64,000 nucleotides of DNA from NCBI GenBank assembly GCA_009844085.1, contig VYCF01000041.1, positions 1-64,000 of the forward strand, read 5' to 3'. Shown here piece by piece: positions 9,287 to 27,524 of the stretch. The position numbers were made by a program, and so were the translations under genes. Below the pieces are notes generated by a model that saw only the letters and a list, made by a program, of their open reading frames with translations, did not search any database and was not told where the DNA came from. The stretch's first letter is position 1; every line of letters begins with the position of its first letter. Source of the stretch: Gammaproteobacteria bacterium. GTDB taxonomy: Bacteria > Pseudomonadota > Gammaproteobacteria > Pseudomonadales > Pseudohongiellaceae.

Positions 9287-9414
9287 GTGGCTTCGAACCG
9301 TCGCCGTCTGGTGTGCGGAGTGCAGCGGACGCCGTAAATCCATCCCTGGAGGCTTCGGGCTCGGCATCCTGCCTCGCACGCCCGCCGCACCCCGCACACC
9401 AGACGGCGACTCAT
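9287..9414 (+). repeat. hairpin repeat, copy A
   Basis: Long inverted repeat between pntB and the RDD gene. The left arm 9301-9328 pairs with 9382-9409 over 28 bp with two mismatches; the 53-nt loop is 9329-9381. The loop shares GGCTTCGGGCTCGGCATCC with copy C (reverse strand) and aligns with copy B at 21778-21908. The outer flanks GTGGCTTCGAACCGTCGCC (left) and GGCGACTCA (right) are also shared. Arm sequences are copy-specific. The element carries no gene. The open frame running through it toward the RDD gene is not conserved protein. Confidence 0.85.
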
Positions 9415-9450
9415 GCAGTGCAGGCCCCTACTGTCATTCTGCGCAAAGCA

Positions 9451-9933
9451 ATGCTCAATCAACCTGAACCAGTCACCGCAAGTTTGCCCACCGCCGGACT
9501 GATTCGGCGGCTCGCGGCCCTGCTCTACGACGCCTTTCTCGTACTGGCGATCTGGATTACGCTCGGCTTCGCGGCGCAACTCATCGCGGGCGCCGGAACG
9601 AATCAGGTCATCGACGGCCGGGTGGAAACCGATCCGCTGTTCGGCCTGCTACTATTCGCGCTCATGTGCGCCAGCGCCGCGGCCTTCTACGTCTGGTTCT
9701 GGACCCGCGGCGGCCAGACCCTCGGCATGGTCGCCTGGCGCATCAGGGCGCAATCCCGCGACGGCAACCTGATGACCGTCCGCCAGGCGCTGCTCCGCTT
9801 CCTCTGCGCCTGGCCGGCCTTCTTCCTCTTCGGTCTCGGATACCTCTGGCTCTACTTCGACCCCGAGGGCGACGCCGCGCACGACCGCCTCTCACGCACC
9901 CGGGTCGTCCTCCTTCCCCGCCGTCAACGCTGA
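9451..9933 (+). CDS. RDD family membrane protein
   Basis: A 160-residue inner-membrane protein. It has an N-terminal TAGLIRRLAALLYDAFLV, where the RDD signature Arg-Asp positions begin the first helix. Two more hydrophobic stretches follow (about residues 60-80 and 108-130), and TRGGQTLGMVAWRIRA is the conserved loop. It ends with DRLSRTRVVLLPRR, typical of the family. I chose ATG 9451 because the frame upstream is translated hairpin repeat. Some RDD proteins have been linked to ion transport, but most have no known role. The last 10 bp overlap the 3' end of the convergent alkaline phosphatase gene. Confidence 0.82.
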   Translation: MLNQPEPVTASLPTAGLIRRLAALLYDAFLVLAIWITLGFAAQLIAGAGTNQVIDGRVETDPLFGLLLFALMCASAAAFYVWFWTRGGQTLGMVAWRIRAQSRDGNLMTVRQALLRFLCAWPAFFLFGLGYLWLYFDPEGDAAHDRLSRTRVVLLPRRQR

Positions 9934-11414
9934 TCGAGTTGGCTTGCTTCCATCATGATGTGGAAGATCACGTTTTGCTCGATCACGCCGCGCACGAGGT
10001 CCGAGCCCGGGCCGACCGCATAGACCGCCACGTCTTCCCCGCCATGGGTCTCCGAGCCGAGCGGCACCAGGGTCTGGGAGCGGAAACTCTCGTGGGTGGT
10101 GTCGACGTGGCTCAGGTCTTCGTCGCGGCCGGCATTGGGGCCGTTGATGTAGCCGAGGGTCGTGTATGGCATGCCGTCGGCGGCGAGGTCCGGCTCTCCG
10201 TCGCCGCCGGCCACGATGCCGAGGATGGGATTGCCCCTGCCGGGATAGCCGGCAACGGTGAAGACATGGCTGTGGTCGGCCGTGACGATGATGAGCGTCT
10301 CGGACAGATCCACCATCTCGTAGGCGGTTTGCACCGCACGCGCGAATTCGATGGTGTCGACCAGCGCCCGGCGCGGACTCGTGGCATGGTGGGCGTGATC
10401 GATGCGCCCGGCTTCGACGTTCAGGTAATAGCCGTTCGGATTTTTCGAGAGAATCCCGATCGCCTTGGCGGTCATCTCGGACAGGCTCGGCTCGCCGCCC
10501 GCGTCGTTTTCGCGGTCGAGTTCGTATTCCATGTGCGACAGTTCGAACAGGCCGAGCAGATGGGAGACTTCGCTCGAATCCACCGCGGCGAATTGTTCGG
10601 CGTTCCAGACATAGGCGGCATCATCGTGGCGTTCGACCCATTCTCCGGTCAGGTCTCTGCCGTCAAGCCGATTTCCGGCTTCGCCGTCTTCGGGGTCCGC
10701 TCCTTCGAAATTCGGCAGGAAAGCGCCGCGGCCGCCGCCAAGCGCGACTTCAAGCCCGTCGGAGTCTTCCAGATTTTCGGTGAACTCGATCAATTGCCGG
10801 GCGATGTCGGCGCAATCACCCGGATCGGACAGGCCGGCGGCATCGGCGTCGGACTCGAAATTGCGTTCCATGATATGGGCGTAGTTCGACGCCGGCGTGG
10901 CATGGGTGAGCCGCGCCGTGCTGACGACTCCGGTCGCCAGGCCGCGCATTTCCGCGATTTCGAGAAAGGTAAGCAGCTCCGCCCCTTGCTGGGAAGCGCA
11001 ATCACCGCGCAGCGCGGCATCGCTGACGCTGATCAGTCCCGCCCTTGTCTTCACGCCCGTTACCATGGCAGTCATGGTTCCAGCCGAATCGGGCACCTGG
11101 GCGTCGGTGTTATAGGTCTTGGCGAGGGCGAGATTGGGAAAAGTCTCGAAGAACAATTCGTTCTCCTCGCCGGTCTCGCCGCGCAATTGTCCTTCGAGGA
11201 TGCGCGCGGCGGTTACCGTGGATACGCCCATGCCGTCGCCGACGAAGAGAATCACGTTTTTCGCCCTGGCGCCCTCCGCTGCGCGCAAGGCAAGATTTCG
11301 TTCGACCGCCGCACGACCCTCCTCGAACCAATCCCCCGGGGACTGCTGGGAATGGGCCGCGAGCGGCAAGGACAACAGGCTCATTGCTGAAACAAGGGAC
11401 AAGATACGATTCAT
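9924..11414 (-). CDS. phoA: alkaline phosphatase, exported
   Basis: A 496-residue periplasmic phosphomonoesterase. The signal peptide (residues 1-22) ends at AHS. Metal ligands and the nucleophile are recognisable: FVGDGMGVSTVTAAR (Asp ligand), VPDSAGTMTAMVTGVKT (catalytic Ser in DSAG), GRIDHAHHA, TADHSHVF (Asp-His) and a late SETHGGEDVAVYA (His). It releases phosphate from organic esters using Zn and Mg. It is monocistronic and convergent with the RDD gene (10-bp overlap). No Pho box was identified. It is closer to marine and Bacillus-like forms than to E. coli PhoA, judging by DSAGT instead of DSAAS. Confidence 0.9.
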   Translation of the reverse strand: MNRILSLVSAMSLLSLPLAAHSQQSPGDWFEEGRAAVERNLALRAAEGARAKNVILFVGDGMGVSTVTAARILEGQLRGETGEENELFFETFPNLALAKTYNTDAQVPDSAGTMTAMVTGVKTRAGLISVSDAALRGDCASQQGAELLTFLEIAEMRGLATGVVSTARLTHATPASNYAHIMERNFESDADAAGLSDPGDCADIARQLIEFTENLEDSDGLEVALGGGRGAFLPNFEGADPEDGEAGNRLDGRDLTGEWVERHDDAAYVWNAEQFAAVDSSEVSHLLGLFELSHMEYELDRENDAGGEPSLSEMTAKAIGILSKNPNGYYLNVEAGRIDHAHHATSPRRALVDTIEFARAVQTAYEMVDLSETLIIVTADHSHVFTVAGYPGRGNPILGIVAGGDGEPDLAADGMPYTTLGYINGPNAGRDEDLSHVDTTHESFRSQTLVPLGSETHGGEDVAVYAVGPGSDLVRGVIEQNVIFHIMMEASQLDQR

Positions 11415-11480
11415 GGCAATAATCCGGTGAAGCCGACACTCGGCAAAGACTAGTGCCGGAATATTACAACGAGATGAAGA

Positions 11481-11520
11481 CGAGATTCCGCGACTGCGCT
11501 TCGCTCCGCGCGGAATGACA
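11481..11520. repeat. short palindromic repeat (REP-like)
   Basis: ATTCCGCG at 11485-11492 and CGCGGAAT at 11509-11516 form an 8-bp stem around a 16-nt loop. The element lies in the gap between the convergently read alkaline phosphatase promoter side and the thioesterase 3' end. It resembles widespread REP-type intergenic palindromes. It could also end thioesterase transcription, although no T-tract follows. Confidence 0.5.
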
Positions 11521-11526
11521 GGGAAG

Positions 11527-11970
11527 TCAGGCAGCCTGGGCTTCCGACGATTGCACCAGTTGCTTGAACTGCCGGGGTACGGAGACCATCTGGTGCTTGT
11601 CGAAATCGAACAGTACGACGCCCATCTTGGCCACGCAGACCACCGAATCGAGCGCGCTGTTGGTGACCCGCAGGCAGATGTCGACGCCGTAGCGGTTCAC
11701 CTTGCCGATGCCGACATCGATGATCAGCACGTCGTTGGCGAAGGATTCGGAGCGGAAATCGACAGAGAGGTCGGTCACGACCATGCCGAGACCGAAGATG
11801 TCTTCCTCGGTGAAACCGAGACTTGCCAGGTATTGCAGCCGCGCCTCGTGAAGTATCTCGACCATCGACAGACTGTCGAGGTGTTTCGCGTAGTTCACGT
11901 CGCTGAGACCTACGCTTCTTTCCATTCTGAAGGTGAATTCTTCCGGGAGGCTGAGCTTGATACGAGGCAT
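11527..11970 (-). CDS. acyl-CoA thioesterase, hotdog fold (4HBT family)
   Basis: 147 residues. The hotdog-fold pattern includes VGLSDVNYAKHLDSLSMVEILHEARL, where the Asp-x-Asn of 4-hydroxybenzoyl-CoA thioesterase/YbgC-like enzymes is expected, then VVTDLSVDFRSESFANDVLIID and GVVLFDFDKHQMVSVP. Such enzymes hydrolyse acyl-CoA or acyl-ACP thioesters in the cytosol. The substrate is not evident. It is a single gene read away from pepA, with a 187-bp gap between them that should contain both promoters. Confidence 0.8.
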   Translation of the reverse strand: MPRIKLSLPEEFTFRMERSVGLSDVNYAKHLDSLSMVEILHEARLQYLASLGFTEEDIFGLGMVVTDLSVDFRSESFANDVLIIDVGIGKVNRYGVDICLRVTNSALDSVVCVAKMGVVLFDFDKHQMVSVPRQFKQLVQSSEAQAA

Positions 11971-12157
11971 GACGGGTACTCCATAGCTTTAGCAGATATC
12001 GCTCTTCCATGAACTGCTTTTCATGTGGCTCTTCTTGAGACCGCGCACAACCGATTTGGTTCAATCCAATTCGGTCCGGCGGTTGCCTGAACCGGTCAAT
12101 CTACTTAGCATTACGCCCCTGCGTCAATACTGAACCGACTTTGGGAGGAAAAGGCTC

Positions 12158-13642
12158 ATGCAATTCTCGGTCACGCCGGAATCCATCGCGGAAATTCCAG
12201 CCGATTGTCTTGTGATTCCGGTCTGGAAAGACGGCGGACTGGGCAAGGAAGCGAGCGCGCTTGACGCGGCCGTTTCCGGGGCTCCTGGCCGAATCGCCGC
12301 CAGCGGGGACTACCTCTGGGACATCGGCGATACGCATTTGCTGCATGGCCCGGAAGATTGCGCCGCGGGCCGCATTCTACTTGCGGGCGCGGGCGCCCCG
12401 GACGATTTCGGCGCCACTGAAGCCGCGAAGTTTCTGGCAGGCAATGCCCGAATCGTGTTGGCCCGGAACATGCCGCAAGTCCACTTCGCGCTTGCGGATC
12501 TTGAGGCGAACGGACCCGATGCGCAATGGCTGGCGGCCAGGCTGGCGCAGGAAGTCGAAGTCGCCGCTTATCGCTACCGGGCCACCAAGGCAAGCACGAA
12601 ACGGGAAGCCGTGCTCGAAGGCGTATCGGCGCCGGCGCTCGCGGACGGTCTCGAACAGGCGTTGCGCCAGGGCCAGGCCATCGGCAAGGGCATGAACCGC
12701 GCTCGTGAACTCGGCAACCTGCCCGGAAACATCTGTACGCCGGAATACCTGGCCTCCCACGCCGGGGAACTGGCCGATGCTTCCGACAACCTCAGCGTTG
12801 AAGTGCTGGATGAGGAGCAAATGCGGGAACTGAAAATGGACAGCCTGCTTTCGGTCGCCGCAGGGTCGGTCGAAGAGGCCCGGCTGATCATGTTGCACTT
12901 TAAGGGCGCGGCCGATGAAGGCAAGCCCGTGGTGCTCGTCGGCAAGGGCATTACCTTCGATACCGGCGGCATCAGCCTGAAACCGGGACTCGCCATGGAC
13001 GAAATGAAGTTCGACATGTGCGGCGCGGCCAGCGTGCTCGGCACCGTTGCCGCGGTCGCCGAACTGCAATTGCCGATCAATCTGGTCGGCATGGTCGCCG
13101 CGGCCGAGAACATGCCCGGCGGCAAGGCGACCAAGCCGGGCGACATCGTCACGAGCATGTCGGGCAAGACCATCGAAATTCTCAATACCGACGCGGAAGG
13201 CCGCCTGGTGCTATGCGACGCGCTCACTTATGCCGAACGCTTCAAACCGGCCTGCGTCATCGACATCGCCACCTTGACCGGCGCGGCCGTCGCCGCCTTC
13301 GGCAATCACGCCAACGTCATGCTCGGCAACGACCAGGCATTGATGGATCGGCTGCTGCAATGCGGCCTCGATAGTCTCGACCGCGCCTGGCAGCTTCCGC
13401 TCTGGGACGAATACCAGAAACAGCTCGACAGCAATTTCGCCGACATGGCCAACATCGGCGGCAAGCTCGCGGGAACGATCACCGCCGCCTGCTTCCTTTC
13501 GCGTTACACGGAAAACTTTTCCTGGGCTCATCTCGACATCGCCGGCAGCGCCTGGCATTCCGAAGGCGCCAGGAAAGGCGCAACCGGTCGCCCCGTGCCC
13601 CTGCTGATGGAATTTCTGCTGAGCCTCCCGAACAAGGACTGA
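12158..13642 (+). CDS. pepA: leucyl aminopeptidase (M17)
   Basis: 494 residues. The M17 active-site pieces are all present: [16 protein letters not shown] (metal-binding Lys/Asp), [33 protein letters not shown] and the signature [10 protein letters not shown], then [12 protein letters not shown] di-metal cytosolic hexamer removes N-terminal residues. In some bacteria it also binds DNA (XerA/CarP role in E. coli), which cannot be judged here. GGGAGGA lies 13 bp before ATG 12158. valS starts 1 bp after its stop. In E. coli holC lies between the two; here it does not. Confidence 0.95.
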
Positions 13643-13643
13643 A

Positions 13644-16466
<2,823 letters not shown>

Positions 16467-16468
16467 CG

Positions 16469-17422
16469 CTAACCCCGCAATCCGACGGGCATGCTGAAAG
16501 TAATGTCTTCCCTGACGCCGTCGAGTTCCTGCACCCGGCATTCGCCGCGATCGCGCAGATAGGAGATGACTTCCTGCACCAGGGATTCGGGCGCCGAGGC
16601 GCCGGCCGTGACGCCGATGCTCTTCTTGCCTTCGAGCCAGGCCGAATCGATGGCGGCGGCGCTGTCGATCAGATGAGCCTGACAGCCGAGCCGCTCGCCG
16701 AGGTCGCGCAAGCGATTGGAATTGGAACTGTTGCGGGCGCCGACGACGAGCATCAGGTCGCATTCGAGCGCCATCTGCTTGACCGCGTCCTGCCTGTTCT
16801 GGGTCGCGTAGCAGATGTCGCTCTTGCGCGGTCCGGTGATTTGCGGAAAGCGCTCGCGCAGGGCGTCGATGATCTGTCCGCAATCGTCCACCGACAGGGT
16901 CGTCTGGGAGACGTAGGACAGGCGCGAAGGATCCCTGACCTCAAGCCGGTGCGCATCTTCGACGGTTTCGATTAGGTAGACGCTGCCGCCGGCGCTGGTG
17001 TCGAAATTGCCGATCGTGCCTTGGACTTCCGGGTGGTTGGAATGTCCGATCAGAACGCATTCGTCTCCCTTGCGGCCGGCCCTGGCCACTTCCATGTGCA
17101 CCTTGGTCACCAGCGGACACGTGGCGTCGAACACCTGGAAGCCGCGTTCGGCGGCGTCCCTGCGAATCTGTTTGGCGACGCCATGGGCGCTGAAAACGAC
17201 GATGGGAGGGCGGCCGGTGGCGTCCTTGTCGGGAATTTCCGGCAGTTCCTCGACGAAGATCGCCCCCAGGTCCCTGAGTTCTTCCACCACGTGGCGGTTA
17301 TGCACGATCTCATGGCGCACGTAAATCGGCGCGCCGAAAAGTTCCAGCGCGCGTTTGACGACGTCGATGGCGCGGTCGACTCCGGCGCAGAATCCGCGCG
17401 GATTGGCCAGCTTGATTTCTAT
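16469..17422 (-). CDS. ispH: 4-hydroxy-3-methylbut-2-enyl diphosphate reductase, apparent ATA start
   Basis: Last step of the MEP isoprenoid pathway, a [4Fe-4S] enzyme. With the start at ATA 17422 the protein is 317 residues and begins [19 protein letters not shown], placing the first cluster ligand at Cys12. The other two are in [11 protein letters not shown] and [15 protein letters not shown] and NSSNSNRL are also present. No ATG, GTG or TTG exists in frame between the preceding in-frame TGA (about 17436-17438) and this conserved start. The first ATG (17320) would delete Cys12. GGAG (17430-17433) sits 7 nt upstream of the ATA, and the fkpB stop is 4 nt away, allowing coupling. An assembly error (G to A) is the alternative. 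Confidence 0.9.
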
Positions 17423-17426
17423 GACG

Positions 17427-17897
17427 CTACTCCAGTTTCAGTTCGCTCGTGCCCGGCGCCAATACCGAGACGATCGCGGCGCGGAAAACGATCTCCCTGC
17501 CGGCGAGCGGATGATTGAAGTCTACCTCAACTTCGGCCTCGGCGATGCTGCGAATTACTCCGGGACGGTCGAAACCGGCGGGATCCTTGAACATCACTAC
17601 GCTGCCCGGCGCCAGCGGCACGAGTTCGTCACGCAACAGCGAGGCAAAATTCGCCGCCGGAAATTGCTGCAGATTGGCGGGATTCACCGCGCCGAAAGCG
17701 TGTTCCGGCGAGATCCTGCGCTCGATCTCGTCGCCTGCTTCCAGACCGAGCAGGACTTCCTCGAAAGCCGGGGGCAGATTGCCGTCGCCGATGGTGCAAG
17801 CCGCCGGCTTGCCGGCGAAATTCGAATCGACGACCGAACCGTCGGCCAGCGCCAGCGAGAAATGCAAGTTTACCGTTGCGCCGATTTCGACCTTCAT
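17427..17897 (-). CDS. fkpB: FKBP-type peptidyl-prolyl isomerase, SlpA type
   Basis: 156 residues. The FKBP domain is interrupted by the IF (insert-in-flap) chaperone domain, as in SlpA/Sly[41 protein letters not shown], then [16 protein letters not shown]. There is no His-rich SlyD tail, so SlpA/FkpB fits better. It lies between ileS (19 bp upstream) and ispH (4 bp from its stop to the proposed ispH start), its usual place in gammaproteobacteria. Its last codons supply the GGAG that probably serves ispH. Confidence 0.92.
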
Positions 17898-17916
17898 CGC
17901 CCTGATTCGTTTTCAC

Positions 17917-20757
17917 TCAGGCAAACAGCCGCCGCTCGCCTTCCCCCTCGATATTGTCGATGCAGCGCCCGCACAGGTCCGGATACTTCGCCTGGCGGCC
18001 GACATCGGGCCGATGATGCCAGCAGCGTTCGCATTTGTCGTGGGAAGTCGCCGACAGCCGCACGCGCAGGCCCGGGATTTCGGTTTCCACGCTGTCCGCG
18101 CCGGCTCTAGACAGCGGATGCGCTTCGGCGCGGGATACGATCAGGGCGAAGCGAAGTTCGTCGCCCAATTCGCGCAACTGCGCCAATAAGTCATCGTCCG
18201 CATACAGGTCAACTTCGGCGCTCAGACTCGAACCGAGGGTCTTGTCCGCGCGTTTTGCTTCCAGTTCCCGGTTGAGCGCCGCCTTGACCGCCATGACCCG
18301 GTCCCAGAATGCGTCGGAGAACCGTCCCTCCGTTTCGAAGCTCTTGTTGGAACCGCGCCCTGCCCCAACCATGTCGGTCAACAGCACCGAAGCGGCCCGC
18401 TCGCCTGGGATGTTCTCCCAGATCTCGTCTGCGGTGAAACTGAGGATCGGCGCGATCATCGGGCTCAGCATTTCAAGGATGTGATACATGGCGGTCTGGG
18501 TCGATCGCCGCGCCAGACTATCGGCGCGAGTGGTGTATTGCCGATCCTTGATGACGTCGAGATAGAAACCGCCCAGTTCGATTACGCAGAAATGATGCAC
18601 CTTCTGGTAGATCGCCAGGAAATTGTATTCGTGATATTGCCCGATTACCTCCGCCAGCAATGCTTCGGTACGGCGCACGATCCAGTGGTCTAGCGCGATC
18701 ATCCGCGCGGGATCGACCAGATCGTCGTCCGGATCGAAGCCGTTCAGATTGGCTAGCATGAAACGCGCGGTATTGCGGATGCGCCGGTAGGCGTCTGCGA
18801 CCTGGCCGAAAATCGCCTCGGATACCGCCATTTCACCGCGATAGTCGGTGGCGGCCACCCACAGGCGCAGAATATCGGCGCCGTACTTTTGAAAAATCTT
18901 CTCCGGCGCGACGGTGTTGCCGAGAGACTTCGACATCTTGCGCCCTTCGGCGTCTACGAAGAAGCCGTGGGTCAGCACTTCCCGGTAGGGAGCGCTGCCG
19001 TTCATGGCGATGGCGGTCTTGAGCGAGGACTGAAACCAGCCCCGATGCTGGTCCGAGCCTTCCAGGTAGAGATCCGCCGGATAACCAAGATGTTCTCGAC
19101 GATTGAGTACGGAAAAATGCGTGACGCCGGAATCGAACCAGACATCGAGGGTGTCGGTGACCTTGCTGTAATGCTCGGCGTCGGCGCCGAGCAATTCCTC
19201 GGCGTCGAGTTCGTACCAGGCATCGATGCCGCCCTGTTCGATCCGCTGGGCGACCTGTTCGAACAACTGTTGCGTGTCGGGATGCAATGCGCCGGTTTCC
19301 CTGTGCATGAACATGGTGATCGGCACGCCCCAGGTACGCTGCCGGGAAATGCACCATTCCGGGCTGCCGCGCAACATCAATTCCATCCGCGCCTGGCCCC
19401 AGCCGGGAATCCACTTGATTCCGGTCACCGCATTAAGCGCCGAATCGAGCAGTCCGCCTTCCTTCATGCTGATAAACCATTGCGGCGTGGCGCGATAGAT
19501 CAGCGGGGTCCTGGTGCGCCAGCAATGGGCATAGCTGTGGGTGATGCGATCCTCGCAGACGAGATTGCCGTTCTCTTTCAATACTTCGACGATGTCGGCG
19601 TCGACCTTGTAGACGTGGGCGCCGGCGAACCGTCCCGCGGCCTCGCGAAAAACACCGTGATCGTTGACAAGATCAAGCGTTTCCAGTCCATACTCGCGGC
19701 CGGTATTGAAATCGTCGACGCCATGGTCGGGCGCGGTATGCACCGCCCCGGTGCCGCTTTCGGTCGTGACATGCTCGCCGAGCACGATGGGCACTTCACG
19801 CTCGTACAGCGGATGGCGCAAGCGCTGCGATTCCAGCCGTGAACCCTTGCACGCCGCGAGCACCTCGAATCGCTCGCAGCCGAATCTTTGCATCACTTCC
19901 GCGGTCATCTCTCCAGCGATCACGAGCAACTCGGGGCCGGCGCCGAGTTCGCAGCGGATCAGGGCGTAGTCGAGCCTGGCATGAAGGCAGACCGCCTGGT
20001 TCGCCGGCAAGGTCCAGGGCGTGGTGGTCCAGATCACGACGGAGACGGGCAACTCGGAATCCGCCTTTGCCAATCCGTCGAAGCAGCCCAACAAGGCCGG
20101 GCGGTCTGCCGCGGGGAAGCGGACGTCGATCGAATACGAAGTCTTGTCCTTGAACTCGACTTCGGCCTCGGCGAGGGCCGAGGCGCCGACGACGCTCCAA
20201 TAGACGGGCTTGTAGCCGCGCACGAGATGGCCGTTGGCGACGATCCGCGCCAGGGCGCGCAAGATGTCGGCCTCGGTCTTGAAATTCATGGTGAGATAGG
20301 GATTTTTCCAATCTCCGAGCACTCCCATGCGGATGAAGCCCGCCTTCTGTATTTCGATCTGGCCGGCGGCGTACTCGCGACAGGCGCGGCGAAACTCGGC
20401 ATGGCTGATCTTCTGCCCCGCCTTGCCCTTTTTCTTTTCGACATTGTGTTCGATCGGCAGCCCGTGACAGTCCCAGCCGGGAACGTAGGGAGCGTCGAAG
20501 CCCGTCATCGCCCGCGACTTGACGACAATATCCTTGAGCGTCTTGTTGATGGCGTGGCCGAGATGCAGTTCACCGTTGGCGTACGGCGGCCCGTCGTGCA
20601 GAACGAAACTCGGACGGCCCGCGTTCTTTTCGCAGATGGCGCGATACAGGTCGAGCTCATGCCATTTGCGCAGGCGCGCGGGCTCGCGGTTCGCGAGGTC
20701 GGCCCGCATGGGGAAGTCCGTATGCGGAAGATTCAGGCTGTCCCTGTACTTGCTCAT
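17917..20757 (-). CDS. ileS: isoleucyl-tRNA synthetase
   Basis: A class I synthetase of 946 residues. The HIGH-type motif is [29 protein letters not shown] follows, with the editing domain ([13 protein letters not shown] and [11 protein letters not shown]), then [16 protein letters not shown]-terminal zinc site is formed by CERCWHH and CGRCIDN. I chose ATG 20757 ([18 protein letters not shown]) because the family starts there. It follows ribF by 22 bp. Normally lspA comes next; here fkpB does, after 19 bp. Confidence 0.96.
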
Positions 20758-20779
20758 GACTATTGTTTCGGCAGTTTTC

Positions 20780-21721
20780 CTAAAATGCCGCGTCGGCGAA
20801 AACGCGCCTGATTCTTTCCACATCGGCGGCGATCTGCCGCTGCAACTCATCCGTCGAGGCGAATTTTTCCTCCTCGCGAATCTTCTGCCGGAAAACGACT
20901 TCGATCGTCTTGCCGTAAAGCTGACCTTCGAAATCCAGCAGATGCGCTTCCAGCACGGGCTTGCCGGAATCGGTCACCGTCGGTCGGTAGCCTATGCTCA
21001 CCGCCGCCGGATATTCGCCGCGGGGAGTCTTCACCATGCAGGCGTAAATCCCATGCAATGGAATCCGCCGGTGCGTCAATTCGATATTGCAGGTGGGAAA
21101 ACCCAGTTTCGCGCCAAGTTGCTCGCCTCTGGCAACCGTGCCGCGAATCGAAAACGGGCGCCCCAGGAATTTTTCGGCCATGGCGAAATCGCCTTGCGCC
21201 AGTTTCTGCCGCACCAGGGTGCTGCTGACGCGCATGCCTTCGACTTCCCGCGTCAGTGTTCGATGGACACTGAAGTCGCATTCCCCGCCCTTGCGCTCAA
21301 GCAGGGCGAAATCGCCAGTCCGCCGATGACCGAAGCGAAAGTCTTCTCCCGCTATCAGCGCCGCCACGCCCAGGCCTTCGACGAGAATGCCGCGGATGTA
21401 GTCTTCCGCCGACATGCGGCTCATCTCCGCATCGAAGCGCAACACGAAACAGAAATCGACGCCGTATTCTTCCAGCAGCCGCAGTTTTTCCTGCTTGTCC
21501 ATCAATCGCGCCGGACAGTCCCCTCCGGACCCGGCGAAGAACTCTTCCGGATGCGGCTCGATCACGATCGCGAGCGCCGGCAAATCCTTTTCCCGCGCCT
21601 GCCCCTTCAATTGATCGAGTATGAGCTGGTGGCCGAGATGTACTCCGTCGAATTTCCCGATCGTGGCCACGCATCGGCCGTGCTTTCGGGAGAAACCGCT
21701 GGCGTCTTCGACAAGAATCAC
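20780..21721 (-). CDS. ribF: bifunctional riboflavin kinase / FAD synthetase
   Basis: 313 residues with a GTG start at 21721. This length equals that of E. coli RibF, and the N-terminus aligns ([31 protein letters not shown]). The N-terminal nucleotidyltransferase has [10 protein letters not shown] and ISSTxVR (here VSSTLVRQ). The C-terminal kinase has [10 protein letters not shown] and [11 protein letters not shown]. An in-frame ATG farther upstream (21859) lies inside hairpin repeat B and upstream of a TATAAT box, so it is unlikely to be used. The enzyme makes FMN and FAD. It heads the ribF-ileS-fkpB-ispH operon. Confidence 0.94.
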
Positions 21722-21752
21722 GGCGCGAGCCCCGCCTGCGCAAAAGGCGGGG

Positions 21753-21758
21753 ATTATA
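21753..21758 (-). promoter_or_regulatory. -10 box of the ribF operon promoter
   Basis: On the minus strand a perfect TATAAT lies 31 bp upstream of the proposed GTG start, giving a leader of about 24 nt. The -35 region would fall at about 21776-21781, right against the end of hairpin repeat B, and is a poor match to consensus. GC-rich GGGG/CCCC blocks flank the box and could form a small hairpin in the leader. Confidence 0.6.
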
Positions 21759-21777
21759 CCCCACGTAACTGGGGTTC

Positions 21778-21908
21778 GTGGCTTCGATCCGTCGCCGACG
21801 GCTGGCGCGAGGTTTAGCGGACGCTGTGAATACGTCCCTGTACGCTTCGGCCCCGACATCCATGTCGGGGACGCCCGCTAAACCTCGCGCCAGCCGCCGG
21901 CGACTCAC
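21778..21908 (+). repeat. hairpin repeat, copy B
   Basis: Second member of the hairpin family. Arm 21791-21820 pairs with 21875-21904 over 30 bp with one mismatch. The 54-nt loop 21821-21874 contains its own perfect hairpin, CCCCGACA / TGTCGGGG (21851-21858 and 21863-21870). Loop and flanks align with copies A and C, but the arms have a different sequence (GGCTGGCGCGAGGTTTAGCGG). It fills the gap between the ribF promoter and the 3' end of the small membrane protein gene. Confidence 0.88.
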
Positions 21909-21923
21909 ATTGTGCGGAACCGA

Positions 21924-22145
21924 CTAGTCTTTTTTGTTTCGCAGTCCGGCGAGGCCGCGGCGGATCAGGTAACGGGCGATGGCGAGCAGAATGGCTATCA
22001 GCACGATTTGTCCTATAAGCAGATGTACGACGGAGATCGTGTCGTTCATGCTCACCATCATGACCATGCTGCCAATGGTTATCGCCGCCAGCGCGGTCAG
22101 CGCCAGGGCGCCGAGGATTTGCAGCAAGGCGAGAAGTTTCTTCAT
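21924..22145 (-). CDS. small two-helix membrane protein
   Basis: I do not recognise this 73-residue protein. It starts MKKLLALLQILGALALTALAAITIGS, a hydrophobic helix. A short polar loop (MNDTISVVH) follows, then a second helix (LLIGQIVLIAILLAIARYLI) and a basic tail RRGLAGLRNKKD, probably cytoplasmic. Its ATG overlaps the stop of the OlsF-type gene (ATGA at 22142-22145), so it is translationally coupled to it and may be a partner or stabiliser of the lipid-modifying enzyme. It is the last gene of the cluster, ending just before repeat B. Confidence 0.6.
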   Translation of the reverse strand: MKKLLALLQILGALALTALAAITIGSMVMMVSMNDTISVVHLLIGQIVLIAILLAIARYLIRRGLAGLRNKKD

Positions 22146-23896
22146 CCGACCGAAGCGAGATCAGCCAGTTTGTGGCGGGAATAGAATTCGCGGGCCCCGT
22201 CGGCGCCCATGAAACGCGTGACCGTCTTCGGATCGGTCTTGCGCACGTCGACGATGATCAGGCCCTCGAGCGAATTGTTGAAATCCGAATGGATATTGAA
22301 GCAGACCATGCGGCCCTTGAGCGACAGGTAATGACGCAAGAGGACGGGCACCGCCTTCCCCGGGTCGCAACGGCCGATGAGCTTGCCGAGCATCTTGATG
22401 TTGACCAGTTCCTTGAGCATGTCCTCGGACCATACGCGGTGCGCGATCTTGTGCGGGGTCAGAGGCTTGACCAGGGGCACGAATTCGCTGGCCTTGAAAT
22501 TGGTGAGCAGGGCATCGGCGATCAGCGCCCGGGCGAGGTCGCTGTATTCGCGCGAGATGCTCACCGAACCGAAAAGAGTGTGATATCGCGGGCGGTCCAC
22601 CAGCACCCGGCCGATGCCGCGCCAGAGCAGGGTGAGAGAATCCGGGCGCCGCTGATAATCGGGATGGATGAACGAACGGCCCATTTCTATCGCCGAGCCG
22701 AGCCGCTTGATGAAGGCCTTGTCGTAACGGTAGAGGGAACGGCTGTAGAGCCCTTTCACGCCATGCTCGCTGACGATTTCGTCGACGAGGCCGACCCGGT
22801 AGGCGCCGGCGATCCTGTCGTTCTTCTTGTCCCAGAGAAAGAGATGCAGGTAATGCGGGTCGAACTGGTCCGAATCGCGGGTCAGGCCGGTGCCTTCGCC
22901 GACCGCGCGAAAAGTGATTTCCCGCGCCACGGCGATCAGTTCCATGACGATGCCCAGGCGGTCGTAAGGCGCGCAATAGACATCGAAATCTTCGTGTTCG
23001 ATCAGGCGGAACTCTTTGAGTCCGGCCAGGGATGAGGCCAATTCCTCGCCAGTTGCGACCTGACAGACATCTTCCACATGCCGCTCGAATTTCGCCGGCT
23101 CCGGCTCGGGACGCATCGCCAGCGCTTCGGTGCTTACGCGCAGATACTCGGTAACCGCCCCTGGCTTTATCAGCAGGCGCAATTCCTGGGCAAGCACCGG
23201 CCTGCCGAGGGTTAGTTCCAGCGTGAAGCCTTTCTTGTTCGCCAGTTGCCTGGGCAGCAGCACGGTGCGCAGGCGCGGATGGATGAGGCCGGCCAGATAG
23301 AAATACGCGCTGTTGTATCCGTTTATGTGCACCGGTACGCAGGCGCATTCGTAACGCTTGATCAATTGCCCCGCCAGCCGGTTCCATTTGCGGTCCTGGA
23401 TGCGGCGTTCGCGCAATTCGATCGCCGATACCATCCCCGCCGGGAAAAGCAGCACCGCCCCGCCGCCGCGCAAGTGCTTGTGTACTTGCTTGACGCCCTT
23501 GACGTTGCCGCCGGCTGCATCGGACGACAATACGTCGACGCCGATGAAGAGCGGCGCCAGTTCAGGTATGCGCCGCAGCAGTTCATTCGTCAGCACCTGC
23601 AGATCGGGCCGGATCCTGAGCAAAATCCTGGCCAGGGCGATGCCTTCCAGACCGCCCAACGGGTGATTGGCTACGATCAGCAGCGGGCCTTCGCGAGGAA
23701 TCTGCTCCAGGTGATGTTCGTTGTTGATCTTGAGGCTGACGCCGAGCGAATCGAGCGAAAATTGCAGAAAATCTTCCGGATTCAGTCCATGGGGCCGGAT
23801 GTCGTAAATGTCCCCCAACTGGCCCAGGCCCAGCAGCTTCTCGGCAAGCGCGGCCAACGCCCGTGGTTTGAAATTCAGGCGGCAGGGATTAGTCAT
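22142..23896 (-). CDS. olsF: OlsF-type two-domain acyltransferase (aminolipid synthesis)
   Basis: 584 residues with two acyltransferase domains. The N-terminal PlsC-like domain (about residues 50-260) has ANHPLGGLEG and FPAGMVSA. The C-terminal GNAT/OlsB-like domain (about 300-560) has FDVYCAPYDRLGIVMELI, EIGRSFIHPDYQRR-like segments (here EMGRSFIHPDYQRRP) and FGSVSISREYS. Known OlsF proteins make ornithine lipids: the C-terminal half N-acylates ornithine and the N-terminal half O-acylates the product. ATG 23896 overlaps the end of the ATP-grasp gene by 8 bp. The OlsF name rests on domain order and length. A hemolysin-like acyltransferase of other specificity cannot be excluded. Confidence 0.75.
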   Translation of the reverse strand: MTNPCRLNFKPRALAALAEKLLGLGQLGDIYDIRPHGLNPEDFLQFSLDSLGVSLKINNEHHLEQIPREGPLLIVANHPLGGLEGIALARILLRIRPDLQVLTNELLRRIPELAPLFIGVDVLSSDAAGGNVKGVKQVHKHLRGGGAVLLFPAGMVSAIELRERRIQDRKWNRLAGQLIKRYECACVPVHINGYNSAYFYLAGLIHPRLRTVLLPRQLANKKGFTLELTLGRPVLAQELRLLIKPGAVTEYLRVSTEALAMRPEPEPAKFERHVEDVCQVATGEELASSLAGLKEFRLIEHEDFDVYCAPYDRLGIVMELIAVAREITFRAVGEGTGLTRDSDQFDPHYLHLFLWDKKNDRIAGAYRVGLVDEIVSEHGVKGLYSRSLYRYDKAFIKRLGSAIEMGRSFIHPDYQRRPDSLTLLWRGIGRVLVDRPRYHTLFGSVSISREYSDLARALIADALLTNFKASEFVPLVKPLTPHKIAHRVWSEDMLKELVNIKMLGKLIGRCDPGKAVPVLLRHYLSLKGRMVCFNIHSDFNNSLEGLIIVDVRKTDPKTVTRFMGADGAREFYSRHKLADLASVG

Positions 23897-25022
23897 TGGC
23901 GGGATACCGCTTAACCAGTTGCAACTCGTGGCGCCACGCTTTATAGAGCGGCCATAAGCCAGGCGGTTTGCAGCCGCGTTTCTTGTGCGCTGCTCCAAGT
24001 TTAAATAGCGTTCGATATTGCTGCAATAGCGTTTTTACGGCGTCGAAAAATCCGGTGCGGCGATCCCAGATATGGATCGATTCGGAACTTGCGCCGTTGA
24101 TTTCGACGATCTGCAGCTCACGGCCCGCCTGCAGGCTTTGGACATCGCGGAACTTGATATCGAGCCTGCCGTAATAGAAGCCCGGCAAATCGTCGAAAAT
24201 CCGGTCCAGCGCCCTGGTCAACTCCGTGGTGACGAGATGGCCGCCGTTGCGGAAAACCGCGCCGCGGCAATGGCTCGCCGAAAATACGAGTCGCCAGGGA
24301 TTGCCGGCGGGAATCACCTTATGCCAATGTTCGGCGTTGCGTTCTTCGTAAAGATGCGGCACGCCGCCCGCGCGCGGATCGGCGGCAACGAGTTCGGCCA
24401 GGGTATGCACGCCGTCGCCGACGACATAGGGCGTATATTTCAGCGTCAATGAAGTGATCCGGCCCCGCTCGCTCACCGGGTCGCGCACGTAGAACACCCC
24501 GGCTTCCGCCTCGAAGTCGCTCAATCGCTGCAGCATCAGCGAACCGCCGGCCGGGAATCCTTCCAGGCAGGATTCGAGCGCGGCGCCGTCGCGCAACAAC
24601 TTGACGCCGGCGCCGCGGCAGCCGATATCGGGCTTGCCGACCACGGGATACGACAATCCGGCAGCGGCCATGGCGGATTCCGCGCGTTCGCGTTGAACGG
24701 ACGGCGATTCGCCGCTGGATTCGAACACGACCCACGGCAGGATCGAACGGTTTGCCGATTCCCCGGCAAGTTTCAGAATTGCGGATTTCGGTACGCCGAC
24801 CATGCCCGACAGGGGCACAGCCGGATTCGCGATCAGCGGCAGGCTGATGCTGCGGTGGCGCAGGGCCAGCAGCAGCCAGAGCGCCGCCACCGGGATATAC
24901 ATCAGCCAGGAAGGCCAGAATTCGAAAAAGGAATAGGCGCGGCCACCGAGATCAAGCGCCGGCATTCCTTGCGGCACATGGGCGGCTTCTTCGGCAGTGG
25001 ACTGTTTCGTACCCCTTGCCAC
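23889..25022 (-). CDS. membrane-anchored ATP-grasp family protein
   Basis: 377 residues from a GTG start 3 bp after the transporter gene; an ATG at 24965 would give 358. A hydrophobic segment near the N-terminus (FFEFWPSWLMYIPVAALWLLLAL) suggests membrane attachment. The rest looks like an ATP-grasp ligase: YPVVGKPDIGCRGAGV (ATP-binding Lys), GGSLMLQRLSDFEAEAGVFY, KYTPYVVGDGVHTL, and YGRLDIKFRD...LQIVEINGASSES with the metal-binding Asp/Glu/Asn. ATP-grasp enzymes join a carboxylate to an amine. The substrate is unknown. Tight coupling to the OlsF-type gene (8-bp overlap) suggests a lipid or an amino-acid headgroup as substrate. Confidence 0.7.
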   Translation of the reverse strand: MARGTKQSTAEEAAHVPQGMPALDLGGRAYSFFEFWPSWLMYIPVAALWLLLALRHRSISLPLIANPAVPLSGMVGVPKSAILKLAGESANRSILPWVVFESSGESPSVQRERAESAMAAAGLSYPVVGKPDIGCRGAGVKLLRDGAALESCLEGFPAGGSLMLQRLSDFEAEAGVFYVRDPVSERGRITSLTLKYTPYVVGDGVHTLAELVAADPRAGGVPHLYEERNAEHWHKVIPAGNPWRLVFSASHCRGAVFRNGGHLVTTELTRALDRIFDDLPGFYYGRLDIKFRDVQSLQAGRELQIVEINGASSESIHIWDRRTGFFDAVKTLLQQYRTLFKLGAAHKKRGCKPPGLWPLYKAWRHELQLVKRYPAND

Positions 25023-25025
25023 CGC

Positions 25026-26558
25026 TCAATCCACGCCGTGAATCGCGCCGCGCAAGTATTCCACGGCGTCGGTGACGGAGCGGCCTTCGACGTCGACGAT
25101 GCGATTGGCCTCGCGCATGATTTCGTCGGGGATGCGGCCCGCGAGATCGGCCAGGGCGGCGATGAATTCGGGGTTTTGCGCCGCCTCCCCCGAAGTCAGC
25201 AGAAAACCGTCGTACGGCAGCATGGCGTTGCGGGGATCTTCGAGCACGAGCAAGTCGAAATGGGCGATTCTGCCGTCGCTGGTATAGGCGGTGATGAGAT
25301 CCACCTGGCGTTCGTCGACGGCCGTGTACATCAAGGTCGTGTCGAAAGTGAGCTTCCGGGCGAAATCGATGCCATAGGTATCGCGCACCGAGATCCATTC
25401 GGGGCGGCCGAAGAACTCGAGGTCACCACCGGCCGTGAGTTGCCTGGCAACGGGTATCAGGTCTTCGATCGAGTTCACGCCGAGTTCGGCCGCCCGATCC
25501 TTGCGCATGGCGAGGGCGTACAGGTTCTGGAATCCGAATTCGCCGATCACGTTCATGCCGCCGGTGGTTTCGACGAAGTCGACGACTTCCGCCAGCACTT
25601 CGGCCCGGCCCGGATTGTCGTTCCGGTTCATTATATTCGCCCAGACCGTACCGCTATATTCGAGATAGGCGTCGACGGTGTTGTTGGCCGTAGCCTCGTA
25701 GATCACCTGGGTCCCGAGGCCGAGGCGCTGGTCGACGCGAAAGCCCGCATCGATGAGTTCCCGGGCCAACAGGCCGGCGATGATATGCTGTTCGGTGAAT
25801 CCCTTGCCGCCGACCACGAAATCCGCTTCGGGTTCGGGCAGCAGGCTCCAGGCGGATACGCCCGCGCCGAGCAGGACCGCGCCGGCAACGGCGGCGAACA
25901 CCCGGCGATAGCGGCCGGCGACCTCCTCGTTGTTGCGATTTTCCACAAGCCACTGGATGCTGCCGATCATGGCGTCGAGAATCACCGCCATGACCGCGGC
26001 GGCGATGCTGCCTACGGTGACAGCGACCAGGTTGCGCGTCTGCAGGCCGGTGAATATGTAGTTGCCGAGACTGGTAGCGCCGACCAAAGTGGAAAGCGTT
26101 GCCAGCCCGACCGTCCAGACGGCGGCGGTGCGGATGCCCGCGATGATCACCGGCAGGGCCAGCGGCAACCGTACGCGCGTGAGAATCTGGGTGCGCGACA
26201 TGCCGATGCCGCGGGCGGCTTCGACCACGTCGTCGGCGACGTTTTCCAGTCCGGTGACGGTATTGCGCACAATCGGCAGCATGCTGTAGAGCAAGAGGGC
26301 GACAAGCGCCGGCAGCAGGCCGATGCGGCCGCCGAGGGCGGCCACGGTCAAGGCGAGAATGGCTACGCTCGGAATTGTCTGCAAGACGCTGACCGAAATA
26401 AGCAAGGGGCGTTTCAGTGCGGGCTGCCGGTTGGCGAGAACGCCCAGCGGCACGCTGACGGCGATGCCGAGACTCAGGGCGATCAGGGTCAGCAGCAGAT
26501 GCCCTTCGAGATACTCGGGCAATAGCAGCAACTGTTCGCGCAGATTGTCGCTGATCAT
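25026..26558 (-). CDS. osmoprotectant ABC transporter, fused permease and substrate-binding protein
   Basis: 510 residues. The first half is a ProW/OpuCB-like permease with several membrane segments and the EAA-type loop (DVVEAARGIGMSRTQILTRVRLPLALP). The second half, from about residue 225, is an OpuAC-like binding domain (DFVVGGKGFTEQHIIAGLLARELID, then VDAYLEYSGTVW) for betaine, choline or related quaternary amines. Permease-binding fusions of this kind are known in the OpuB/OpuC group. Its ATG overlaps the stop of the ATPase gene (ATGA). It imports compatible solutes under osmotic stress. The substrate cannot be specified. Confidence 0.85.
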   Translation of the reverse strand: MISDNLREQLLLLPEYLEGHLLLTLIALSLGIAVSVPLGVLANRQPALKRPLLISVSVLQTIPSVAILALTVAALGGRIGLLPALVALLLYSMLPIVRNTVTGLENVADDVVEAARGIGMSRTQILTRVRLPLALPVIIAGIRTAAVWTVGLATLSTLVGATSLGNYIFTGLQTRNLVAVTVGSIAAAVMAVILDAMIGSIQWLVENRNNEEVAGRYRRVFAAVAGAVLLGAGVSAWSLLPEPEADFVVGGKGFTEQHIIAGLLARELIDAGFRVDQRLGLGTQVIYEATANNTVDAYLEYSGTVWANIMNRNDNPGRAEVLAEVVDFVETTGGMNVIGEFGFQNLYALAMRKDRAAELGVNSIEDLIPVARQLTAGGDLEFFGRPEWISVRDTYGIDFARKLTFDTTLMYTAVDERQVDLITAYTSDGRIAHFDLLVLEDPRNAMLPYDGFLLTSGEAAQNPEFIAALADLAGRIPDEIMREANRIVDVEGRSVTDAVEYLRGAIHGVD

Positions 26559-27334
26559 GGCCGGGCGCTCTCATCCCGGATCAGGCGGTCGAGCCGGACC
26601 GCCTCCTGGCGGGGCATTTCCACCATTTCGCTGACGTAACCGTGTTCGGGCTCCATGAGCAGTTCGTGGGGCGTGCCGACCTGCAGCACCTCGCCTTCCT
26701 TCATGACCGCGATGCGGTCCGCGAGCAGCAGGGCTTCCATCATGTCGTGGGTGACCAGGATAACGGTCAGGTCGAGCTTGCGCTGGATCGCCCTGAATTC
26801 GTCCCGTAATTGCCCCCTGGTGACCGGATCGAGGGCGCCGAAAGGTTCGTCCATGAGGACGACTTCAGGGGATGCCGCCAGCGCCCGGGCAACGCCGACC
26901 CGTTGCTGCTGGCCGCCGGACAGTTGCATCGGATTGCGCTCGCCGTATTCCTCCGCCGGCAGGCCGACGAGTTCGAGCGCCTCGCGGCAGCGGCGATCGG
27001 TCTCTTCCCGGGTCCATTGCAGGAGCCGCGGCACGGCCGCGACGTTTTCCATGACGGTGTAATGGGGAAAGAGACCGATGCCCTGGAAGACATAACCGAT
27101 ATTGCGTCGCAGCGCCTGGGGATTGCGGTCCATGACGTCGCGGCCGCCGACGAAGACCTCCCCGGCGTCAGCTTCCTCGAGCCGGTTGATCATCTTCAGC
27201 GTGGTGGTCTTGCCGCAGCCGGACTCGCCGATGAGACCCAGCAGTTCGCCTTTTTCGATCTTGAGACTTACGCCGGCGACCGCAAGCGTCGCGCCGTTAT
27301 CGTAGCTTTTGCTGACGTTCCGTAGCTCGATCAT
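26555..27334 (-). CDS. osmoprotectant ABC transporter ATP-binding protein
   Basis: An ABC ATPase of 259 residues from ATG 27334. Walker A is GLIGESGCGKTTTLKMIN, the Q-loop lies in NIGYVFQGIGLFP, the signature is LSGGQQQRVGVARAL, and Walker B is VVLMDEPFGALDP with switch His in LVTHDMMEALLL. The C-terminus lacks the CBS pair of OpuA/ProV ATPases, so any osmotic sensing must differ. It is the first gene of a cluster running through the permease, ATP-grasp, OlsF-type and small membrane genes. A TTG at 27355 is a possible longer start. Confidence 0.88.
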   Translation of the reverse strand: MIELRNVSKSYDNGATLAVAGVSLKIEKGELLGLIGESGCGKTTTLKMINRLEEADAGEVFVGGRDVMDRNPQALRRNIGYVFQGIGLFPHYTVMENVAAVPRLLQWTREETDRRCREALELVGLPAEEYGERNPMQLSGGQQQRVGVARALAASPEVVLMDEPFGALDPVTRGQLRDEFRAIQRKLDLTVILVTHDMMEALLLADRIAVMKEGEVLQVGTPHELLMEPEHGYVSEMVEMPRQEAVRLDRLIRDESARP

Positions 27335-27394
27335 ACGCACCGGAGCATACTTCAATTCCGTTTACTACGCTCGGTGGGAGAATTCTTGAACGGT

Positions 27395-27523
27395 GTGAGT
27401 CGCCGTCGGGTGGCGGGGGGTTCAGCGGGCGTGCGAGGCATGGATGCCGAGCCCGAAGCCTACGTGGATGTACTTGTGGCGTCCGCTGAACCCCCCGCCA
27501 CCCGACGGCGACGGATCGGAGTC
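27395..27523 (-). repeat. hairpin repeat, copy C
   Basis: Third member, in the opposite orientation to A and B. Arm 27399-27428 pairs with 27483-27512 over 30 bp without a mismatch. The 54-nt loop 27429-27482, read on the minus strand, matches the loops of A and B (GGCTTCGGGCTCGGCATCC). The left end is GTGAGTCGCC, as at the right ends of A and B. It lies between the start of the transporter operon and the stop codon of the DUF4252 gene, ending 1-2 bp before that stop. Confidence 0.9.
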
Positions 27524-27524
27524 C

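What the first reader, a model, noticed from the sequence alone, without database searches (positions are those of the whole stretch)
9287..27523. A family of hairpin repeats whose arms differ but stay paired, around a conserved loop
Three intergenic elements share a 53-54 nt loop and outer flanks (GTGGCTTCGAWCCGTCGCC and GTGAGTCGCC). Their stems of 28, 30 and 30 bp have different sequences in each copy and yet pair with 2, 1 and 0 mismatches. Arms that diverge while pairing is maintained suggest selection for structure, or a copying mechanism that rewrites one arm from the other (as in hairpin-templated repair or a MITE/REPIN-like mover). Conserved loop, variable arms is the reverse of ordinary REP families.
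Basis: partly seen in the sequence, partly recalled or inferred. Interest (0 to 1): 0.85.

Follow-up and report, generated by a model that had tools for sequence, protein, structure and literature searches.

The report
Paired-arm hairpin repeats, likely CsrA-binding
The genome carries dozens of copies of a hairpin whose tip is nearly constant and looks like a double binding site for the regulator CsrA, while its long stem differs from copy to copy yet almost always stays paired; this shows which part carries sequence information and points to the strand that is folded, but the function is untested.

Summary
The genome, related to uncultured Pseudohongiella, has at least 57 full-length copies. 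In 150 equal-armed copies from it and sister genomes, inner-arm mismatches are 2.0% within a copy, against 34.8% when arms are swapped between copies. The closest known family is the Rfam TwoAYGGAY RNA (RF01731): one own copy passes its cut-off; the window copies do not. Of 236 tips without a loop insertion, 213 show two C-A(N)GGAN-G loops, 23-24 nt apart in 210, as CsrA/RsmA sites would. Wobble mismatches are G.U on the strand carrying those loops 103 times against 14 on the other (68:4 in other genera; 47 and 43 further mismatches are neither), so one strand seems kept folded. No Y1/RAYT gene was found in eight element-bearing genomes of the genus. At the same site in sister species, most close pairs show no or one-sided changes, and most distant ones two-sided changes or different arms. 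Selection for pairing is supported; arm copying or hairpin replacement may add to it. Other genera carry similar tips on unrelated ~30-bp stems, often head-to-head. This is a high-copy variant of a known candidate RNA; CsrA binding is the leading, untested function.

The parts
9287..9421 (-). Element 1, whole (loop-motif strand is -)
   Evidence: R1 covariance model 133.6 bits; direct reading
9300..9330 (.). Element 1 left arm
   Evidence: 31 bp, 2 mismatches besides the constant pair
9331..9379 (-). Element 1 loop/tip with two GGA loops (TCC on + at about 9343 and 9367)
   Evidence: direct reading
9380..9410 (.). Element 1 right arm
21778..21915 (-). Element 2, whole (loop-motif strand is -)
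   Evidence: R1 163.9 bits; RNA fold of - strand -101.3 kcal/mol, z -9.3; + strand -91.6, z -7.1
21791..21822 (.). Element 2 left arm
   Evidence: 32 bp, 1 mismatch besides the constant pair
21823..21872 (-). Element 2 loop/tip with two ANGGA hairpins
21873..21904 (.). Element 2 right arm
27388..27525 (+). Element 3, whole (loop-motif strand is +)
   Evidence: R1 150.8 bits
27399..27430 (.). Element 3 arm
   Evidence: 32 bp, 0 mismatches besides the constant pair
27431..27480 (+). Element 3 loop/tip (second hairpin altered, CGTGGATG)
   Evidence: direct reading
27481..27512 (.). Element 3 arm
27513..27525. Element 3 end corresponding to GTGGCTTCGAWCC (the 3 mismatches lie here)

Best explanation
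The elements are a dispersed, high-copy form of the TwoAYGGAY candidate RNA. The sequence-carrying part is the ~50-nt tip: two small hairpins with A(N)GGA loops a fixed distance apart, most likely a double site for the RNA-binding regulator CsrA/RsmA (inferred, not shown). The ~30-bp stem is a handle whose length and pairing matter but whose middle sequence is nearly free; it is held paired by selection acting on one strand (inferred from the G.U strand bias, strongest in other genera), so arms drift apart between copies while pairing is kept. Copies differ in presence and orientation between sister species, so they have been gained, lost or turned, and they decay by losing the hairpin (shown). 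When transcribed they could titrate CsrA or bring it to neighbouring mRNAs (inferred).
For: Family: RF01731 43.8 bits (cut-off 43) for own copy C65:25652-25779, 6 own copies at E<=0.01, 0 of 14 control genomes; L066 38.7 bits over the full model. Tip: in 30 own copies C52 A53 G55 G56 A57 G59 and C76 G79 G80 A81 G83 are invariant while the N positions vary; two CA(N)GGANG loops in 163 of 182 uninserted tips of the genus and 50 of 54 of other genera, spacing 23-24 nt in 161 of 163 and 49 of 50. The consensus RUACARGGAUGU, conserved ACA and GGA, and bridging of sites >=10 to <=63 nt apart are from passages of PMC7652899; a CsrA role for TwoAYGGAY was proposed in PMC4333381 (passages). Pairing: helix 1 99.0% of cells paired, 20 of 33 pairs with two-sided change; whole structure 0 of 500 shuffles, 35-51% paired when slid; inner mismatch 47 of 2366 against 34.8% for swapped arms in 150 copies, unchanged without 6 flagged records (46 of 2269, 35.0%). 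Strand: 103 vs 14, 68 vs 4 in other genera; pooled loop and flank transitions show no matching bias (G>A 63/1631, C>T 83/2182 on +, summed). Gain/loss: at flanks 95.6-96.4% identical the sister holds another element in the opposite orientation at the element 3 site. Decay: 11 of 80 places show both ends without the hairpin; at four own remnants (L001, L011, L015, L072) a sister keeps the hairpin.
Against: None of the three window copies reached the RF01731 cut-off and only one own copy did. No binding or expression data. Only a weak preference for the strand read by neighbours (-- 43 vs ++ 27, P=0.07; 51 of 128 copies have no neighbouring gene reading that strand; genes called by a simple codon model), so a plain 3'UTR role does not fit all copies. 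Within this genus the strand bias rests partly on shared ancestry (distinct position/type combinations 25 vs 13, P=0.07) and is weak in the inner arms (12 vs 5, with 30 other mismatches). 47 of 164 mismatches in the genus are not wobbles on either strand. 33 of 215 records carry a longer loop (at least 3 of these not genuine elements) and only 2 of them keep two such loops.
Confidence: 0.58

Rival explanations
1. Hairpin-templated copying (template switching in replication) rewrites one arm from the other, so pairing is kept by a mutational process rather than by selection.
For: Inner arms: UA to CG and CG to GC changes with almost no one-sided states; in the genus the inner mismatches are few and mostly not wobble (12+5 vs 30 of 2366), as if copies are made perfect and then drift. 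Same-site orthologues at 86-87% flank identity with otherwise identical arms differ by one two-sided change (F083/F091). One copy with an inverted loop between normal ends (L187). The mechanism is described for RNA hairpins, inverted loops included, in PMC8794818 (abstract and passages).
Against: Copying does not explain the strand bias of wobbles (103:14 and 68:4), nor the constant U.G pair near the loop in 147 of 150 copies, nor a C.A pair at stem position 8 in 16 of 47 own copies with different inner arms. Close orthologues abutting on both sides show no or one-sided changes, not point-like two-sided ones (F022/F098, F035/F129). Loop inversion, its expected by-product, was accepted in only 1 case against 237 normal.
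Confidence: 0.25
2. Exchange between copies (gene conversion or re-insertion) replaces whole hairpins at a site, so different but perfect arms appear at once.
For: F073/F212: flanks 92.3% identical and aligned up to both ends, shared left-end variant CGAGCC, yet arms and arm length differ. F006/F167 and F059/F063, also abutting on both sides, differ likewise at about 80%.
Against: It moves existing arms and does not create paired diversity; no donor copy was looked for; loops differ too little between copies to tell whether the loop came along (5 of 49, against a family mean of 15.5%). Other same-site pairs keep the same arms (F164/F174, F162/F170).
Confidence: 0.3
3. A REP/REPIN-like or MITE-like passenger moved by a RAYT/IS200-type (Y1) transposase as single-stranded DNA.
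For: High copy number, conserved ends, presence/absence and orientation differences between sisters. PF01797 genes are present in G092, G094 and G095, element-bearing genomes of another genus.
Against: No PF01797 gene in 8 of 8 element-bearing genomes of this genus searched; no clear target duplication of 3-9 nt in 208 copies and no leading/lagging bias in G057 (18:14, assuming ori at dnaA and the terminus opposite).
Confidence: 0.06
4. Hairpins at gene ends that stabilise or terminate mRNAs, with no partner protein.
For: 43 of 53 neighbouring gene 3' ends lie within 25 nt of an own copy (or overlap it), against 9 of 51 5' ends.
Against: Does not need a near-invariant double GGA loop at fixed spacing; no terminator-like site found around element 3 (only that region scanned); 24 of 128 copies lie between divergent genes. 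The 3' bias may only reflect avoidance of promoters.
Confidence: 0.15

Closest known systems
TwoAYGGAY RNA (Rfam RF01731)
   Same: Two hairpins with ANGGAY loops, tandem G.A in one hairpin stem, long poorly conserved outer stem (PMC4333381 passages)
   Different: At least 57 dispersed copies in one genome, shared ends, ~30-bp near-perfect stems with conserved outer and inner blocks; only one own copy reaches the Rfam cut-off
CsrA/RsmA decoy RNAs (CsrB, RsmZ type; recalled)
   Same: GGA in hairpin loops; the common form of hairpin 2, UACAGGGAUGU, matches the SELEX consensus
   Different: Two sites per copy, many dispersed copies, no promoter shown; binding untested
YPAL/RU-2 repeats of Yersinia and Ysr224 (RF02770)
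   Same: Repeat of about 140-170 bp with a palindrome; the loop aligns with Ysr224 (31.9 bits, cut-off 70)
   Different: YPAL makes 3-26 bp target duplications (PMC2229807 passage); none clear here. That YPAL, Ysr224 and these are one family was not tested
REP/REPIN with RAYT
   Same: Dispersed palindromes; head-to-head pairs in G057 and in another genus
   Different: No Y1 gene in the 8 element-bearing genomes of this genus searched, longer stems than the 20-40 bp REPs (PMC3733652 abstract), conserved loop and variable arms

Membership tests
TwoAYGGAY (RF01731) | Score at or above the Rfam gathering cut-off | tested here: inconclusive
   1 own copy at 43.8 (cut-off 43) and 6 own copies at E<=0.01; 0 in a scan of the window plus 13 loci
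TwoAYGGAY (RF01731) | Two hairpins with AYGGAY-type loops on one strand | tested here: met
   163 of 182 tips without insert have two CA(N)GGANG loops; structure counted. The second loop position is often G rather than Y
TwoAYGGAY (RF01731) | Tandem G.A in one stem (feature reported in PMC4333381) | tested here: met
   Columns 48/63 and 49/62 of A2 are unpaired in 12 of 30 rows, read as GA/AG in the alignment
CsrA/RsmA target RNA | ACA and GGA in hairpin loops, two sites 10-63 nt apart | tested here: met
   rule from PMC7652899 passages
CsrA/RsmA target RNA | A csrA/rsmA gene in the genome | tested here: inconclusive
CsrA/RsmA target RNA | Binding by the protein | not testable with these tools
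   needs a gel-shift or CLIP experiment
REP/REPIN | Companion RAYT (Y1) gene | tested here: not met
   PF01797: 0 of 8 element-bearing genomes of the genus searched
YPAL/RU-2 | Target duplications of 3-26 bp | tested here: inconclusive
   No clearly enriched direct repeat of 3-9 nt in 208 copies; longer ones not scanned
YPAL/RU-2 | Sequence similarity to YPAL | not tested
   No YPAL sequence was fetched

The most novel reading that the evidence does not exclude
A selfish or domesticated repeat family that spreads double CsrA sites through the genome, so that dozens of gene ends jointly titrate the regulator, and whose stems are rewritten in place faster than their tips and flanks, by arm copying or hairpin exchange, while one strand is kept folded.
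Probability: 0.22. Interest if true: 0.82.

Novelty: new variant of a known kind. Interest (0 to 1): 0.62.

Why it matters
It gives an unexplained Rfam family (TwoAYGGAY, 2010) a high-copy natural collection: at least 57 copies in one genome plus same-site orthologues. That makes two open questions testable: whether TwoAYGGAY RNAs are CsrA decoys, and whether long stems stay paired by slow compensation or by copying. The strand test (wobbles on one strand only) is a cheap way to name the functional strand of palindromic repeats.

Tried and rejected
RAYT/Y1 transposase: absent from 8 of 8 element-bearing genomes of the genus searched. Against a clean rejection: it is present in G092, G094 and G095 of another genus, which also bear elements, and in congeners without a model match (G027, G014, G113; one sub-threshold hit in G024).

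Rolling-hairpin copying at every move: argued against by mismatches shared among copies with different inner arms.

Target duplications of 3-9 nt (best excess 14 against 5.2 for a 3-mer) and replication-strand bias in G057 (18:14): none clear.

Mutational strand bias as the cause of the wobble bias: not seen when loop and flanks are pooled; the left flank alone leans that way (G>A 32/596, C>T 15/596), right flank and loop the other way.

Core homogenisation between the two members of head-to-head pairs: cores are closer within pairs (edit distances 0-12, mean about 6) than between units (mean 13.9), but only 2 of 12 pairs are within one change, so I do not build on it.

Inverted-loop copies: of 7 flagged, 3 were not loops (L034, L046, L210), L203 is a mirrored contig end (assembly artefact), L159 is cut off, L349 has two left-type ends; only L187 looks genuine.

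Plasmids and phages: no match to the element 2 stem-loop; viral contigs 0 exact matches to the left-end motif.

Rows dropped or doubtful: one search kept 150 of 161 records; one search removed 7 of 54 units with near-identical arms (one search also a 47-bp one, leaving 46); one search excludes loci of other genera and prints 8 of 34 pairs as 'length differs' without pair counts. A check flags 15 of 215 records as odd: at least F018, F079 and F191 are chance matches in other DNA, F060 is the other strand of F061, F088 is a composite; the rest mostly lack the usual left end. Leaving flagged records out changes nothing material (144 copies: 46 of 2269, 35.0%, 102:14:46).

Full report
What is there. 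The three elements are as described: 9287-9421 and 21778-21915 in one orientation, 27388-27525 in the other, each with a 13-nt left end, a 31-32 bp stem, a 49-50 nt loop and a short right end. Excluding one constant A.C pair near the loop, the stems have 2, 1 and 0 mismatches. Neighbouring genes by NCBIfam scan: before element 1 a protein like NAD(P) transhydrogenase subunit beta (375 bits, below that model's cut-off of 689) and, beyond it, an ORF with partial likeness to alkaline phosphatase; beside element 2 ribF; beside element 3 an ABC-transporter ATPase and a short protein with a weak match (GFO_1090).

How many. The left-end motif has 78 matches in the genome at up to 2 mismatches, 0 in the reversed control. 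A covariance model (R1) built from 30 own copies finds 57 full-length copies; its '100 matches' also count the other strand of the same hairpins and a few remnants, and only 150 of 3737 candidates were scored, so 57 is a lower bound. My pattern finder recovers 56 of these 57 plus one chance match. Sister genomes carry many too; 53 of 61 genomes of the genus have no match to the left-end motif at up to one mismatch, but weaker model matches (E<=0.001) occur in 67 of 107 genomes of the family. Named relatives are uncultured Pseudohongiella or Pseudomonadales assemblies.

Are the arms different but paired? In 47 own copies there are 43 distinct inner arms. In 150 copies of this genus with equal arms of 30-34 bp (of 161 records; 11 dropped), inner mismatches are 47 of 2366, against 34.8% when arms are swapped between copies; without 6 flagged records 46 of 2269 and 35.0%. 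On 30 aligned copies 99.0% of outer-stem cells pair and 20 of 33 pairs have two-sided changes; for the whole structure no shuffle of 500 reaches the values and sliding the partner drops pairing to 35-51%. Mean divergence between copies is 0.35 in the inner arm, 0.16 in the loop (67 copies with 50-nt loops) and 0.05 in the seven loop-proximal stem positions.

Which strand. G.U is a near-pair only on one strand; the other strand then has A.C. Of 164 mismatches, 103 are wobbles on the loop-motif strand, 14 on the other, 47 neither; the constant pair, counted apart, is U.G on that strand in 147 of 150. In 47 stems of other genera left after removing near-identical arms, the numbers are 68, 4 and 43, and 20 against 1 in positions 11-20 from the loop (46 stems). 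Transitions in loop and flanks show no matching bias when pooled (63/1631 against 83/2182, summed). Against this: in this genus the ratio falls to 25 against 13 (P=0.07) if each position and type is counted once, and the inner arms alone give 12 against 5 with 30 other mismatches.

What it resembles. An Rfam scan at the curated cut-offs gave nothing for the window and 13 loci. With permissive settings L066 matched TwoAYGGAY over its full length (38.7 bits) on the loop-motif strand, and two loci matched Ysr224 on the other (best 31.9 bits, cut-off 70). A genome search with RF01731 put one own copy over its cut-off (43.8) and six at E<=0.01. Two CA(N)GGANG loops are present in 163 of 182 uninserted tips of the genus and 50 of 54 from other genera, spaced 23-24 nt in 210 of these 213. 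This fits the CsrA rules in PMC7652899 (passages: consensus RUACARGGAUGU, ACA and GGA fully conserved in SELEX, sites >=10 to <=63 nt apart bridged). That TwoAYGGAY might bind CsrA is already in print (PMC4333381, passages); TwoAYGGAY was listed in PMC2864571 (table passage). A search for TwoAYGGAY found 7 papers, 5 listed; one for TwoAYGGAY, CsrA and repeat found PMC4333381 only.

How it evolves. Same-site orthologues: 34 candidate pairs, not independent of each other, 8 of them with arms of different length. At 91-97% flank identity: no change in F083/F112, F164/F174 and F162/F170; one-sided changes only in F163/F167 (1), F035/F129 (1) and F022/F098 (4). Two exceptions: F073/F212 (92.3%), where the ends match and the arms are wholly different, including their length, and F037/F142 (91.8%), which abuts on one side only and differs by 9 two-sided and 2 one-sided changes, so it may not be the same insertion. 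Of 19 countable pairs below 91%, 18 have at least one two-sided change (for example F083/F091 1; F033/F056 2 with 3 one-sided; F059/F063 8), and F072/F166 (85%) has 4 one-sided and none two-sided; several of these abut on one side only. So one-sided changes look transient and hairpins are sometimes replaced. This fits compensation under selection, arm copying (PMC8794818, passages) or exchange between copies; my data do not separate them. Both ends without a hairpin were found at 11 of 80 places, and at four own remnants a sister keeps the hairpin. At the element 3 site a sister with flanks 95.6-96.4% identical has another element in the opposite orientation.

Other genera. Similar tips sit on unrelated stems, 28-34 bp in 51 of 54 units, in related genera. 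Units 60-500 bp apart were head-to-head in 19 of 19 tallied cases in four genomes; outside that tally there is a same-strand neighbour pair in G123 (41089/41291) and one in G057 involving a weak 29-bit match (2424997/2425232).

Mobility. No Y1/RAYT gene in eight element-bearing genomes of the genus searched, no clear target duplication of 3-9 nt, no replication-strand bias (18:14) in G057. How copies move is unknown.

Verdict. It is a new high-copy variant of a known candidate RNA, with CsrA binding as the leading, untested function.

Noticed in passing
G092, G094, G095, G057 (e.g. L308 1178-1640, L310 1204-1642): In related genomes the hairpins often come as head-to-head pairs (loop-motif strands pointing outward), 19 of 19 tallied cases within 60-500 bp, with different stems in the two members examined.
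   Followed up: partly
L052, L065, L069 (own genome) and others: An insertion of about 73 nt with its own hairpins sits in the loop near the second GGA site; longer loops in 33 of 215 records, at least 3 of them not genuine.
   Followed up: no
L010, L014, L049, L057, L063, L072 and others: Remnants: both ends of the element without the hairpin, 11 of 80 places.
   Followed up: partly
L187 about 145-285 (sister G022): One copy with the loop inverted between normal ends, as expected of arm-to-arm template switching.
   Followed up: partly
ends of C7, C13, C16, C22, C30, C33, C34, C74 of the own genome: Contigs often stop inside or next to an element, so copy numbers from fragmented assemblies are lower bounds.
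   Followed up: no
stems of other genera (L273-L336): The 5' arm of the loop-motif strand is G-rich (G 797, C 333, A 259, T 292); reason unknown.
   Followed up: no
window 27388-27525 against L120: At the orthologous site the sister genome has a different element in the opposite orientation.
   Followed up: partly
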